NCBI GenBank assembly: GCA_002887195.1
Contig: PJAB01001229.1
Coordinates: forward strand, 1 to 16,181
DNA from: Chrysochromulina parva
Taxonomy: Eukaryota > Haptophyta > Prymnesiales > Chrysochromulinaceae
Direction: 5' to 3'
Length of the DNA: 16,181 nucleotides
In this document: piece after piece, positions 3,630-12,483 of the stretch
Position numbering within the stretch: the stretch's first letter is position 1
Layout of the letters: each line of letters begins with the position of its first letter
Program-made: the position numbers and the translations under genes
The notes under the pieces: model-generated
The model's input: only the letters and a program-made list of their open reading frames with translations
Told to the model about the DNA's origin: nothing
Database searches by the model: none

Positions 3630-6000
3630 TCACTCTCTGCCTGCCAAGCTCTTGGCGCCCTTCCACATCCGCGCGTACCTGGTAGGCGAGCGCGCCGTGC
3701 TGAGCACTTGCATGCACGGCGGGTCATCAGCGGCAATCAGCGGCAATCAGCGTACCAGGGCGGGTTGCGCGCATACTCCGCGTCCTCCTCGCGCTGCTTG
3801 GCGATCCGGCGGCGCTCCGCGATCCGATGGCACTCGCCTGATGAGGGAGGCAATCAATGGTCATCAGGCGATCCGGCGGCGCTCCGCGATCCGATGGCAC
3901 TCGCCTGATGAGGGAGGCAATCAATGGTCATCAGGCGCAATCGAGCGCAATCAATGGTCATCAGGCGCAATCGATCGCAATCAATGGTCATCAGGCGCAA
4001 TCAATCGCAATCAATGGTCATCAGGCGCAATCGAGCGCAATCGAGCGCAATCACCCCAGATGCACACGAGCTCTGAGGTGAGCATCTCGCAAAACTGCGC
4101 CAGGTCGACCGACTCAGGCCGAATCGGGGGAGGCGTCACGCCCACCACGGCGTCCGCGCCCACTGCGGCGCCCGCGCCCGCGCCCGCTACGGCGCCCACG
4201 CCCACTGCGGCGGCGGTGTCGGGCGCCGTAGCACCGGGCGCTGTGCCGGGCGCGCACGGCTGCGTCGGGCGCTCCCACGTCGTGTGGCCGCGCGCGTCTG
4301 CATAGTACGGGCGCCCCGTCGCGGAGTCGTAAGCACACTGCCAGCCCGCGGGCAGTCGCGCCGTCGTGAGCGCCGTCGGAAGCGCCGTCGTGAGCACTGA
4401 CGGTTCGTCAACGGCGGCGCTCACGACGGCGCTCCGCGGCGCGCCCTTGGCATGAGCGCCGTCGCGAGCGCCGTCCACGGCGAGGAAGGCGAGCGCTAAG
4501 ACGAACCATTCCAGAGGCGAGACGAGGGTGCGCGCCGTGCTGAGCGCCGCGCCTCGCGCCGCCGCCACCCAACCGCCGCCGCCGCCGCCGCCGTCGCTGC
4601 TGCCGCTGCTGCCGCCGCTCACCACGACGCTCGGCTCCGCCGCACCCGCCTTGCCTGACGTGGGCGCCGTCGTGGGCAGCGGCGGCGGCAGCGGCGGCGG
4701 CGGCGGCGGCATCGGCCCTTGCCGTTCGGTGACCGTCGCGCCGCCGTACCAGCCTCGCAGCAGGGTATCGCACCACTCGTCGGCCGTATACTCTCGGACG
4801 GGTGCGACGCGGTACCTGTGGGGAGGAGAGCGTCGTGGTGAGCACATGCATGCAAGCCGGGGGGACGGGTGCGACGCGGTACCACGATCTCGCCAGCCCG
4901 AGATCGTTCTTGCCCTCGTCGTGCACGTAGACACGCTTCTCAGCGGGCACCTGCATGCACGGAGGGGCGGCAATTAGCATGCAATGAGGGGCGGCAATTA
5001 GCATGCAATGAGGGCTCGTGCACGGAGACACGCTTCTCGGCATGCCGCTGCGCTTCGTCAGATCGCATCTCCGCTGCGCCTCGTCAGATCGCATCCAGCT
5101 GCGCTTCGTCAGATCGCATTCAGATTGCACTCCGCTGGTCTTCACACCTGCGCCGTGGCCATCAGAGCTCGCAGCAGCTCGAGGAGCGCCTCTGATGAAA
5201 GTTTCGTCACGGCCTCGCCTCGCACTGCAGGCGGCTCTCCCATGGCCTCGAAGATCGCCTCGAGACGCTCGGCGGTGTTTCCGACGGAGAGGACCCCGAG
5301 GGTGCCCGCCGCAACGCGCACGTCGAGCGAGGGCGCGCCGGGCAACGCCATCAGCATCCTCTCGAGGACGTACCTGATGAGGGAGGCAATTGGAGGTAAT
5401 TAGAGGCAATTAGAGGTAATTTGAGGCAATCAAAGGCCATCAGCATCCTCTCGAGCACGTACTTGTTCTTCAGTGGCGCAATCAGATGCAATCAGAGGCC
5501 ATCAGGCGCAATCAGAGACACGTACTCGTCCCTCAGTGGCGCAATCAGAGGCAATCAGAGGTCATCAGGCGCAATCAGAGGCACGTACTCGTCCTTCAGT
5601 GGCTGGCCGCCGCCGACGGTCTGGCGGAGGTGCGCGAGCAGCTGGTCGACGTGCAGCCGCTTCGCTCCCGCCTTGGCCGGCAGCTGCGTGATCGCGGAGC
5701 TCTGCACCTCGTTGAACGAGCGCAGGTCGAGCACCTCGTCCTCGTTGACGGGCTCTTGCGCGCGCAAGGCCTCCTCGATCGCGTCGCGCAGCTTGTTGGT
5801 CTTGTTGGAGATCCACAGCGAGTAGGCCCACCCGCCGACGAGGGTCAACACCAGGCACGTTATCGGATTGCGCGCCGGCCACGTGAGCCACGACTCGTCC
5901 GCGACGGGCTTGGAGGCGCCGGCGGCGAGCACGTCCGGATGCAAAGCCGGGTAGTTCGTCGAGGATGAGGCTGCGGATGGCGGTGGCGCAGCTGCAGCGG

Positions 6001-6043
<43 letters not shown>

Positions 6044-10938: not shown

Positions 10939-10940
10939 GC

Positions 10941-12483
10941 CTATTCTTTTTTGACGGCAGGCTTTGCGGCGGGTTTGGCGCAGAGCTGTTTGGCGACGGA
11001 GTAGGCGAAGACGCCGCCGATGGCGATAGCGGAGCCCACTTTGCCCTGCAATAAGAGCACGGACCCAAATCAGTGGCAATCAGAGGCAATCAGAGACCAT
11101 CAGAGGCAATTGACGAGACTCGCCTGCAATGAGAGCACGGACCCAAATCGAACGACAGAGTACAAGATGAGGATGACGCGCTTGATGGTGTTACCGACCG
11201 CGTGTGTGATCGGGTGCACCGAGTCGAGCACGTAAAAGGAGACCTCGTTGTACAAATAGAAGGAGAGTCCGCTCGCAACCAAGCGGAAGAGAAGGTCCTG
11301 TGCGCTCACCTGTGGGGAAGGGGTGGCGCCGTGGTGAGCACCTGCATGCAAGGCAGGGCCCGCAGGGCTAGGCCAGAGCTCATTGAGATAGCGCCGTGGT
11401 GAGCACATGCATGCAAGGCAGGGCCCGCAGTGCTCACCCCCTTGGCCATCGCCTTGTCCCATTCGGTGGCCATCGAGGGCCCCTCAATGGCCAGCGCGAT
11501 CGGGAGCACCGCAAGGAACGCGAAGGCTGTCATCACGGCGAAAGCGTTGCCCGGGTCGTCCATGTTCTCTCCCTTGTCCGTCTTCTTGGAGAGCTTCTTT
11601 GAGAGGACTCCACGGAGCGAGAAGGCAAGATTCGAACCCATCGCGAACGCAAAGCAGTCCCAAGTGAAGTTGAGGTCGGCCGCCGACGCGATGCCGACGC
11701 CGCCCACGACTGGTAGCAGGCATGCATTCACCTGCGACGGCAGGTAGTCATCAGAGGTCATCAGTGGTCATCAGTGGTCATCAGCGGTCATCAGTGGTCA
11801 TCAACTGCAATCAGCTCACCTGCCACGGCAGGAAGTCGTTCATGAAGATGGCGCCAAAGACGACGTTGAAGAGCGGCTCGAGCGACTTGACGACGTTGAC
11901 GAACGCGAGCGAGCCCGCGCCGAGCGACATCACAGTCACGCACTGGCCCAGGCCGTGGATGATGCCGATCGGAACGATGTCCTTCGCCTGTCGAGGGGTG
12001 GCGCAGGCGGCGCGCGCGTCAGTCATGAGGCGGGCGGCAGGGCCGGCAGCATGCGCGCGCACGGCGCTCGCGGCGGTCCGAGGGCCGCAACCGCCGCTCT
12101 CACGTTCTCCGTCGAGATCTTGGGCATCTTGCGCAGACCGAGCAGCCAGAGCGGCGCGACCCAGAGCATCAGGCCGAGGCCGAGCTGCAGCGAAGAGACG
12201 ATCCACGGTAGGGCCAGATCTTTGAGCACCGTCTTGTTGTAGTCATTGTACGCCACGTTGATCACGTACCAGACGAGGAAGCCCACCAGAACTGGAGAAT
12301 GGAGTGCAAACGGTCAGCATGCGCAGCAGCAAAAGAAAGGCCGGCGGCGGTGCAAAGTGTAGGCCAGCGGCGGTGCCCGCTGCGCGGATCCTGCACTCCC
12401 GGCCCATCAGCCAAGTGCCAGGTACAGTCAGGCGGCCTTGGGATCTGCGCACTCTTGATATTGTTCGACTGCGCCTCCGCCAT
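10941..12483 (-). CDS. Triose-phosphate/nucleotide-sugar transporter family protein, six exons, 323 aa
   Basis: Exons 12483-12453, 12291-12104, 11987-11820, 11731-11438, 11309-11124 and 11045-10941; all phases fit. This is a drug/metabolite-superfamily antiporter with about ten membrane helices. Plastid members swap triose phosphate, PEP or sugar phosphates for phosphate. Family landmarks: FLVWYVINVAYNDYNKTVL (TM1), GIIHGLGQ (His84), VVKSLEPLF (Lys107), SGLSFYLYNEVSF, and GNTIKRVILI (Lys270-Arg271). They match the His, Lys and Lys-Arg ligand positions of plastid phosphate translocators. The N-terminus is only about ten residues before TM1, with no transit peptide. This suggests an outermost plastid membrane or Golgi location (inference). 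The Lys-rich tail AKPAAKPAVKKE resembles an ER/Golgi-type C-terminal KKXX variant only loosely. Introns 3-5 are repeat-type; introns 1-2 are not. Confidence 0.88.
11045..11149 (-). repeat. 78-nt GC-AG intron with 27-bp duplication
   Basis: 11123-11149 (exon end) and 11045-11071 (intron end) match in 26 of 27 bases, 78 bp apart, the intron length. The donor must be TTGCAG|GCGAGT to keep the reading frame and the TPT alignment; the acceptor is TTGCAG|GGCAAA. Between the copies are TGATTGCCTC and TGATGGTCTC monomers. Confidence 0.85.
11310..11437 (-). repeat. 128-nt intron with duplicated TGCATGCA module
   Basis: Donor AAGGGG|GTGAGCAC and acceptor CCCCACAG|GTGAGCGC share GGTGAGC. Inside, CTGCGGGCCCTGCCTTGCAT continuing into the TGCTCACCACGGCGC module occurs twice (11396-11430 and 11331-11365). 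The adenine of the last CTCAC is 25 nt from the acceptor. Confidence 0.85.
11732..11819 (-). repeat. 88-nt satellite intron with 17-bp duplicated edges
   Basis: CCTGCCGTGGCAGGTGA (11816-11832) and CCTGCCGTCGCAGGTGA (11728-11744) differ at one base and are 88 bp apart, the intron length. The interior is CTGATTGCAG followed by CTGATGACCA-type monomers. Confidence 0.9.

What the first reader, a model, noticed from the sequence alone, without database searches (positions are those of the whole stretch)
3679..11819. Introns are flanked by direct repeats spaced exactly one intron length apart
Introns at 3679-3755 (GGTACGC), 4816-4882 (21 bp), 8585-8714 (AATGGAGCAGG), 11046-11123 (27 bp), 11310-11437 (GGTGAGC), 11732-11819 (17 bp) and 6815-7075 all have the same sequence at both ends. 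The offset equals the intron length. Tandem duplication of an exon segment containing AG|GT or AG|GC gives a ready-made intron whose removal restores the original exon. Insertion of an introner-type element with target duplication would look similar. The variable repeat length (6-28 bp) and the lack of a common body in all introns favour duplication. The window may catch a lineage in rapid intron gain.
Basis: partly seen in the sequence, partly recalled or inferred. Interest (0 to 1): 0.88.

Follow-up and report, generated by a model that had tools for sequence, protein, structure and literature searches.

The report
Introns pasted in with duplicated targets
In what is likely a haptophyte alga, short repeated DNA pieces sit inside genes between two copies of the same stretch of the gene, often 14-45 letters long, and because cutting out one copy plus the piece gives back an uninterrupted gene, they are likely new introns made by pasting, a style of intron birth that the main published survey would probably overlook.

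Summary
In detail: 7 of 7 introns have a direct repeat at an offset equal to the intron length, at most 163 of 100,000 random places matching any of them. Three more such introns lie in the window. The preferred reading, tandem exon duplication, fails: counting the repeat itself, introns are 18-52% identical to equally long neighbours. Their bodies belong to dispersed families: core TGCATGCANGTGCTCACCACG (320 copies) and CTGATKRCCN decamers (5501 paired units; 471 copies of one 21-bp end), with 0 reversed-control hits. Of 68 core copies picked by core alone, 53 are flanked by repeats scoring >=14 against 0.6% of mismatched pairings; these are 14-45 bp, median 25, without terminal inverted repeats. 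37 of 55 have GT and AG at the same offset in both copies, against 9.7% at random. Splicing restores Maf and TPT; relatives lack several of these introns at protein level. Best reading: introner-type insertion with unusually long, variable target duplications, likely at staggered breaks that are filled in. New variant of a known kind. The insertion step and RNA-level splicing remain inferred.

The parts
3679..3755 (-). Intron with decamers plus a core variant; 7-bp repeat (GCGTACC at 3673-3679 and 3750-3756)
   Evidence: boundary not independently supported
4816..4882 (-). Core-family intron; 21-bp perfect repeat at 4796-4816 and 4863-4883; GT from repeat, CCCCACAG from insert
6815..7075 (+). 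Decamer-family intron in Maf gene, GC-AG; repeat 6810-6820 / 7071-7081; internal 87-bp unit repeated 3.2 times (6810-7084)
8585..8714 (+). Decamer-family intron; repeat AATGGAGCAGG 8575-8585 / 8705-8715 (18 bp with 2 mismatches)
11046..11123 (-). Decamer-family intron in TPT gene, GC-AG; 27-bp repeat (1 mismatch) 11045-11071 / 11123-11149
11310..11437 (-). Core-family intron in TPT gene with two core copies (internal 65-bp duplication); 7-bp repeat 11304-11310 / 11432-11438
11732..11819 (-). Decamer-family intron in TPT gene; 17-bp repeat (1 mismatch) 11728-11744 / 11816-11832
1277..1451 (-). Further intron of the same build, GT-AG, decamer body, 28-bp repeat 1252-1279 / 1427-1454
1452..1543 (-). 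Further intron, GT-AG, decamer body, 25-bp repeat 1446-1470 / 1538-1562
5374..5462 (-). Further intron, GT-AG, ends CTCCCTCATCAG, 27-bp repeat with one mismatch 5347-5373 / 5436-5462 (exact run at the boundary only 6 bp)
8101..8168 (+). Core insertion without an acceptor, flanked by 14-bp repeat 8101-8114 / 8155-8168, period 54; the gene's reading frame stops inside, so its product is unclear
8221..8338 (+). Decamer (TCTAATTGCC) array between 19-bp repeats 8221-8239 / 8320-8338
6316..7270 (+). Maf (PF02545) gene; exons 6316-6814 and 7076-7270 join to one domain
10941..11990 (-). TPT transporter (PF03151) coding part used as query; removal of the three introns gives one open frame (upstream exons not resolved)

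Best explanation
These introns are copies of short repeated sequence families that lie in genes between two copies of a short exon stretch (7-28 bp in the window, often 14-45 bp elsewhere in the genome), so they were most likely inserted with duplication of the target, and they are predicted to be spliced out at the same point of both copies, which restores the exon. Shown: the families, the flanking repeats, GT and AG at equal offsets, restored domains, and relatives whose proteins lack the interruption. In the core family the repeat gives the GT and the insert gives a branch-like CTCAC, a pyrimidine tract and CCCCACA|G. In other copies the insert gives GTACGTTGATTGCC and the second repeat gives the AG. 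Inferred: the target is opened by two nicks some 14-45 nt apart on opposite strands; the overhangs are filled in, which makes the repeat; and a short introner copy is captured at the junction, often with a few bases of microhomology. Inserts that carry an acceptor survive as introns; inserts without one survive if they keep the reading frame.
For: Seven of seven repeats at intron-length offset, each rare at random places. Bodies are dispersed families: 320 core, 5501 decamer pairs, 471 copies of a decamer-family end, 0 reversed-control hits each. 53 of 68 core copies have flanking repeats of score >=14 against 0.6% of mismatched pairings, in three batches 22/32, 16/21, 15/15. In these 53: lengths 14-45, median 25, 23 perfect; 0 inserts with a terminal inverted repeat of 6 bp. 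37 of 55 are spliceable at equal offsets against 9.7% at random. Splicing restores Maf (2.6e-58) and TPT (2.1e-65). Flanks joined at eight other loci: six have a stop-free frame, and of these two give a Pfam domain across the junction (L066, L057) and one just after it (L061). P0162, 100% identical, reads through two TPT junctions. Of eleven Maf relatives read, nine lack the insert and the two at 94-95% identity carry it. Copies judged to lack an acceptor: 8 of 9 periods divisible by 3. Microhomology of 2-7 bp at the 5' junction in 7 of 10 copies whose repeat abuts the core, against 3 of 42 others. Different families share the long repeat, which points to machinery more than to element sequence. 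Precedent: nicks giving 43-bp overhangs lead to small tandem duplications by fill-in (PMC8355091, passages).
Against: 15 of 68 core copies and 24 of 34 decamer arrays show no strong flanking repeat; decay or another origin could explain them. 15 of 55 strong core copies have no GT/GC-AG at equal offset and three have GC only. Spliceable copies could be enriched for long repeats because short introns fail to splice; copies without an acceptor still have repeats of 14-28 bp, but they are nine. Only repeats scoring >=14 were counted in the length range, so shorter duplications are left out. Two of eight joined loci (L001, L050) gave no stop-free frame, and three of the six that did gave no Pfam match. 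No RNA data for this strain; P0162 may be a transcript or an intron-less allele, and some continuous relatives may be transcripts. No nuclease or other mobilising enzyme was identified. Recurrence of the same bodies is not expected of random filler capture and needs a preferred donor or a dedicated enzyme.
Confidence: 0.68

Rival explanations
1. The introns are retroposed, SINE-like pieces inserted by target-primed reverse transcription, whose second nick lies at a variable distance and so gives variable target duplications.
For: Variable-length target duplications and variable 5' starts, microhomology at 5' junctions and a frequent 3' end CCCCACA fit such retroposition (general knowledge of LINE insertion, recalled); RVT_1 proteins exist.
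Against: Only 5 RVT_1 matches in 45 Mb, and no other Pfam domain, hence no endonuclease domain, in the two proteins scanned; no core and at most one decamer within the five loci; copies without an acceptor end in or just after the core, so the 3' end is not fixed.
Confidence: 0.18
2. A non-autonomous DNA transposon (MITE-like introner) moved by a transposase.
For: Multi-copy, short, flanked by target duplications; the survey calls most introners consistent with DNA transposition (PMC9860276, abstract).
Against: No terminal inverted repeats (0 of 53 reach 6 bp, mean 2.17 against 2.22 with ends swapped); duplication length runs from 14 to 45 bp instead of one fixed value.
Confidence: 0.06
3. Tandem duplication of an exon segment.
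For: Two copies of an exon piece at intron-length offset.
Against: With the repeat counted, introns are 18-52% identical to equally long neighbours, and their bodies are shared by other genes.
Confidence: 0.03
4. The introns are older, and minisatellite growth plus conversion between intron ends made the repeats later.
For: Internal arrays do change: 87-bp unit repeated in Maf, different arrays in relatives.
Against: The repeat includes conserved exon sequence; relatives lack the Maf intron and two TPT introns at protein level; copies without an acceptor show the same kind of repeat.
Confidence: 0.05

Closest known systems
Introners (introner elements) as surveyed by Gozashti et al. 2022, PMC9860276 (abstract, section 4 part 1, sections 15, 17 and 23 read, and passages)
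   Same: Many similar introns in unrelated genes; insertion into exons; one splice site carried and the other taken from the duplicated target; mRNA length mostly restored. The paper shows a Chrysochromulina sp. introner with 4-bp duplication and its own 5' splice site.
   Different: It describes duplications of 3-9 bp; here 14-45 bp and variable. Inserts here can be 24-50 bp. The survey required similarity to begin within 5 exonic or 10 intronic bases at both ends and removed low-complexity families by hand; here the 5' part of the intron is often target sequence and one family is a decamer array, so both filters would tend to miss them (inference).
Daphnia neointrons from staggered double-strand breaks, PMC4202315 (passages read)
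   Same: Direct repeats of adjacent exon at the opposite intron end, read by the authors as staggered breaks; internal repeats.
   Different: Repeats 4-12 bp there; no recurring insert family described in the passages read.
Amoebophrya introner elements, PMC7789003 (passages read)
   Same: Invasive introns with direct repeats overlapping exon borders.
   Different: Direct repeats 3-5 nt and inverted repeats of 8-20 nt there, mostly at non-canonical introns; no terminal inverted repeats in the inserts here, and GT/GC-AG borders.
Direct repeats near splice sites, Rogers and Bendich 2025, PMC11782384 (abstract read)
   Same: Direct repeats of 4-30 bp reported near intron borders.
   Different: Mean 11.4 bp, sought within 80 bp of the borders; here the offset equals the intron length and bodies form families.
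Small tandem duplications from opposite nicks, PMC8355091 (passages read)
   Same: Small duplications from fill-in of overhangs (43-bp overhangs used).
   Different: Mouse cells with Cas9 nickase; no introner captured and no intron made in the passages read.

Membership tests
Introner | Several similar introns in unrelated genes of one genome | tested here: met
Introner | Insertion into an exon with removal restoring the mRNA | tested here: met
   By sequence only: 37 of 55 equal-offset GT/AG, Maf and TPT restored. RNA not tested.
Introner | Intron absent from orthologues, i.e. gained | tested here: met
   Protein level: Maf, two TPT introns
Introner (DNA-transposon type) | Short target duplication, 3-9 bp (PMC9860276) | tested here: not met
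   14-45 bp, variable; shorter ones fall below the score cut
Introner (DNA-transposon type) | Terminal inverted repeats (72 of 177 families in PMC9860276) | tested here: not met
   0 of 53 inserts reach 6 bp
Intron by tandem genomic duplication | Intron body is a copy of the neighbouring exon | tested here: not met
   ten introns, 18-52% identity
Staggered-break intron gain | Direct repeat equal to the overhang, variable in length | tested here: met
   lengths 14-45
Staggered-break intron gain | Break and fill-in by repair enzymes | not testable with these tools
   needs experiment
SINE-like retroposition | Partner LINE with shared 3' end | tested here: inconclusive
   5 RVT_1 loci, no core in them; full LINE survey not done

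The most novel reading that the evidence does not exclude
A kind of intron birth that is neither transposition with a fixed duplication nor plain filler repair: a host or mobile nicking activity opens exons with offsets of 14-45 nt and repeatedly patches them with the same two minimal splice cassettes (a branch point plus an acceptor, as short as 24-50 bp), making introns where the patch can be spliced and in-frame protein insertions where it cannot.
Probability: 0.35. Interest if true: 0.87.

Novelty: new variant of a known kind. Interest (0 to 1): 0.74.

Why it matters
How new introns arise is an old open question. Here many insertions in one small genome keep both copies of the target, so the original site, the insert and the splice choice can be read for each event. 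The long and variable repeats, the lack of inverted repeats and the shared repeat style of different inserts separate the insertion step from the element. The copies without an acceptor give a control that is free of splicing selection. Introners of this build would probably be missed by the published search rules, so intron gain by insertion may be under-counted.

Tried and rejected
Tandem exon duplication: rejected and the shared bodies. Fixed-length transposition: rejected. Core in viral contigs: 0 matches. A partner retroelement carrying the core: not found in five RVT_1 loci (two scanned). Local spread: copies on one contig (<25 kb) resemble each other more than others do (21 pairs, mean 18.9 of 34 against 14.7 for 1357 pairs; 0 of 2000 label shuffles reach it), but 6 of the 21 pairs come from contig C251. 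Body-free scan of 200 kb plus window: 132 repeat-insert-repeat pairs against 3 in total over three block shuffles, but many are in-frame protein repeats or arrays, so it was not used as a count.

Row handling: copies within 103 bp of a locus end, loci L068-L072 and duplicate loci L002 and L003 were left out. The set for splice tests used score >=12 (55 of 68). 'No acceptor' was judged by eye among the 15 of 55 copies without equal-offset GT/GC-AG: L007, L049, L054, L078, L079, L084, L085 and window 8101-8168 (periods divisible by 3) and L100 (73, not); L067, below the cut, has 65. The other six of the 15 are L050, L051, L073 and L095 (CAG acceptor present, offsets unequal), L052 (a GGC-type repeat) and the duplication inside 11310-11437. 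Open sense frames do not discriminate: seven of the acceptor-less copies have one, but so do 24 of 26 acceptor-bearing copies examined.

Literature: nine searches, seen as listings; five papers were opened. In what I saw, no paper describes introners with such long duplications or this family.
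Full report
Observation. All seven stated introns have a direct repeat at an offset equal to the intron length: 7, 21, 11, 11, 27 (1 mismatch), 7 and 17 (1 mismatch) bp. At 100,000 random places with the same offset, exact runs touching the boundary and at least as long occur 92, 0, 28, 0, 163, 71 and 30 times. That control takes the boundaries as given; for 3679-3755 nothing but the splice motif and the repeat supports the boundary. 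Three more introns of the same build lie on the minus strand at 1277-1451, 1452-1543 and 5374-5462; the last has an exact run of only 6 bp at its boundary, within a 27-bp repeat with one mismatch.

The introns are in credible genes. Removing 6815-7075 yields one Maf domain (PF02545, 2.6e-58, residues 12-208) across the junction, within the stretch GEPMDKAGGYGIQG; the unspliced frame has many stops. Removing 11046-11123, 11310-11437 and 11732-11819 yields one TPT domain (PF03151, 2.1e-65). Protein P0162, on a 970-bp contig, is 100% identical to the predicted product over 138 residues and crosses the junctions of two of these introns; it is a spliced transcript or an intron-less allele, and either fits.

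Age. Of eleven Maf relatives read, the two at 94-95% identity run into an insert at the same place; the nine others, at 63-75% identity, are continuous with one copy of the flank; some of the nine may be transcripts or annotated products. For TPT, P0203, which reads an unrelated insert elsewhere and is therefore likely genomic, is continuous at the positions of introns 11310-11437 and 11046-11123; P0121-P0124, P0146 and P0171 are continuous there too, but may be transcripts or annotated products. Five close relatives (P0177, P0178, P0180, P0182, P0184) read into intron 11310-11437, with varied internal copies. The introns are thus recent on this scale and internally variable. The best named relatives are Prymnesium parvum (66% Maf, 71% TPT) and Phaeocystis antarctica (68% TPT), so the host is likely a haptophyte.

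Bodies. G000, the window's genome (45.07 Mb, 2199 contigs), holds 159+161 exact copies of TGCATGCANGTGCTCACCACG, 3056+2445 of CTGATKRCCNCTGATKRCC and 261+210 of TGATTGCCTCCCTCATCAGGT, each with 0 matches to the reversed pattern. Some inserts join both: GTACGTTGATTGCC, decamers, core, pyrimidine tract (L058, L077, and L005 with GTACGTTGAGTG). Both carry a branch-like sequence, CTCAC or CTGAT (yUnAy, recalled). The window is rich: 14 decamer arrays, against 15 in 200 kb from the first 10 kb of contigs C1-C20.

Flanking repeats genome-wide. Core copies came mostly from the head of the match list, taken without regard to flanks. 53 of 68 have a flanking repeat of score >=14 (match +1, mismatch -2), against 0.6% of 4540 pairings of one copy's left flank with another's right flank; the three batches gave 22/32, 16/21 and 15/15. 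Among these 53 the length is 14-45 bp, median 25; 23 are perfect; no insert has a terminal inverted repeat of 6 bp or more. Decamer arrays: 10 of 34 against 1.0%. Copies with the TCCCTCATCA end: 16 of 33 against 2.1%; some rows overlap in tandem arrays.

Splice logic. 37 of 55 copies (score >=12) have GT and AG at the same offset in both repeat copies, against 9.7% of 11,000 random trials with the same lengths; three more have GC, and 15 have neither. For the 37 the intron length runs from 67 to 126, median 78, with no preference for multiples of three (14, 8, 15 for remainders 0, 1, 2). Flanks were joined at eight loci: six have a stop-free frame over 350 nt, L001 and L050 do not. Of the six, L066 (Pyr_redox_2) and L057 (Gelsolin) give a domain across the junction, L061 (Arm) one that starts just after it, and L062, L008 and L065 no Pfam match.

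Insertion without splicing. Nine copies were judged to lack an acceptor; eight have a period divisible by three (L100 does not; L067, below the cut, does not either). Seven of those eight lie in open sense frames, e.g. L079 reads PSTDAAWNVVV-HASAHHGA-PSTDAAWNVVV; the window copy at 8101-8168 does not continue its gene's frame. Open frames are common here (24 of 26 acceptor-bearing copies also have one), so the frame alone is no evidence; the multiples of three are. The repeats of the nine are 14-28 bp, so long duplication is not only the result of selection for splicing.

Mechanism. Variable length, no inverted repeats, microhomology of 2-7 bp at the 5' junction in 7 of 10 copies whose repeat abuts the core (3 of 42 others), and the same repeat style around different inserts suggest staggered opening of the target, fill-in and capture of a short donor. 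Small tandem duplications from nicks on opposite strands are known (PMC8355091, passages), and staggered breaks are the authors' reading of Daphnia neointrons (PMC4202315, passages). Target-primed retroposition is the main rival. The steps of break, fill-in and capture are inferred.

Relation to known work. The introner survey PMC9860276 describes 3-9 bp duplications, required similarity to start near both splice sites, and removed low-complexity families. Here the first bases of many of the introns are target sequence and one family is a decamer array, so such introners would probably be missed (inference). I class this as a new variant of introner-type intron gain.

Noticed in passing
window 6810-7084; G000 contigs C43, C48, C93, C154, C214, C293, C333: Repeat plus insert is itself tandemly multiplied: an 87-bp unit 3.2 times in the Maf intron, and runs of the TCCCTCATCA end spaced 65-67 bp in other contigs.
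   Followed up: partly
G000 contig C251 (L088, L089, L090): Four core insertions within 11 kb share a private variant (CACGACGCC...) but have different flanking repeats, which suggests local spread.
   Followed up: partly
L079, L007, L049, L078, L084, L085, L059: Open frames contain HASAHHGA, CMQVLTTA or ACKCSPRR (the three readings of the core, some with one change) between repeated peptide flanks.
   Followed up: partly
window 6815, 11046: Two of the seven introns start with GC and not GT.
   Followed up: partly
window 14441-16171 (-): TPR-rich open frame with about seven 126-bp DNA repeats.
   Followed up: no
window 9344-10354 (-): FkbM-type methyltransferase open frame (PF05050).
   Followed up: no
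L068-L072: Only five weak RVT_1 matches in the genome, in long open frames; the two scanned have no other Pfam domain.
   Followed up: partly
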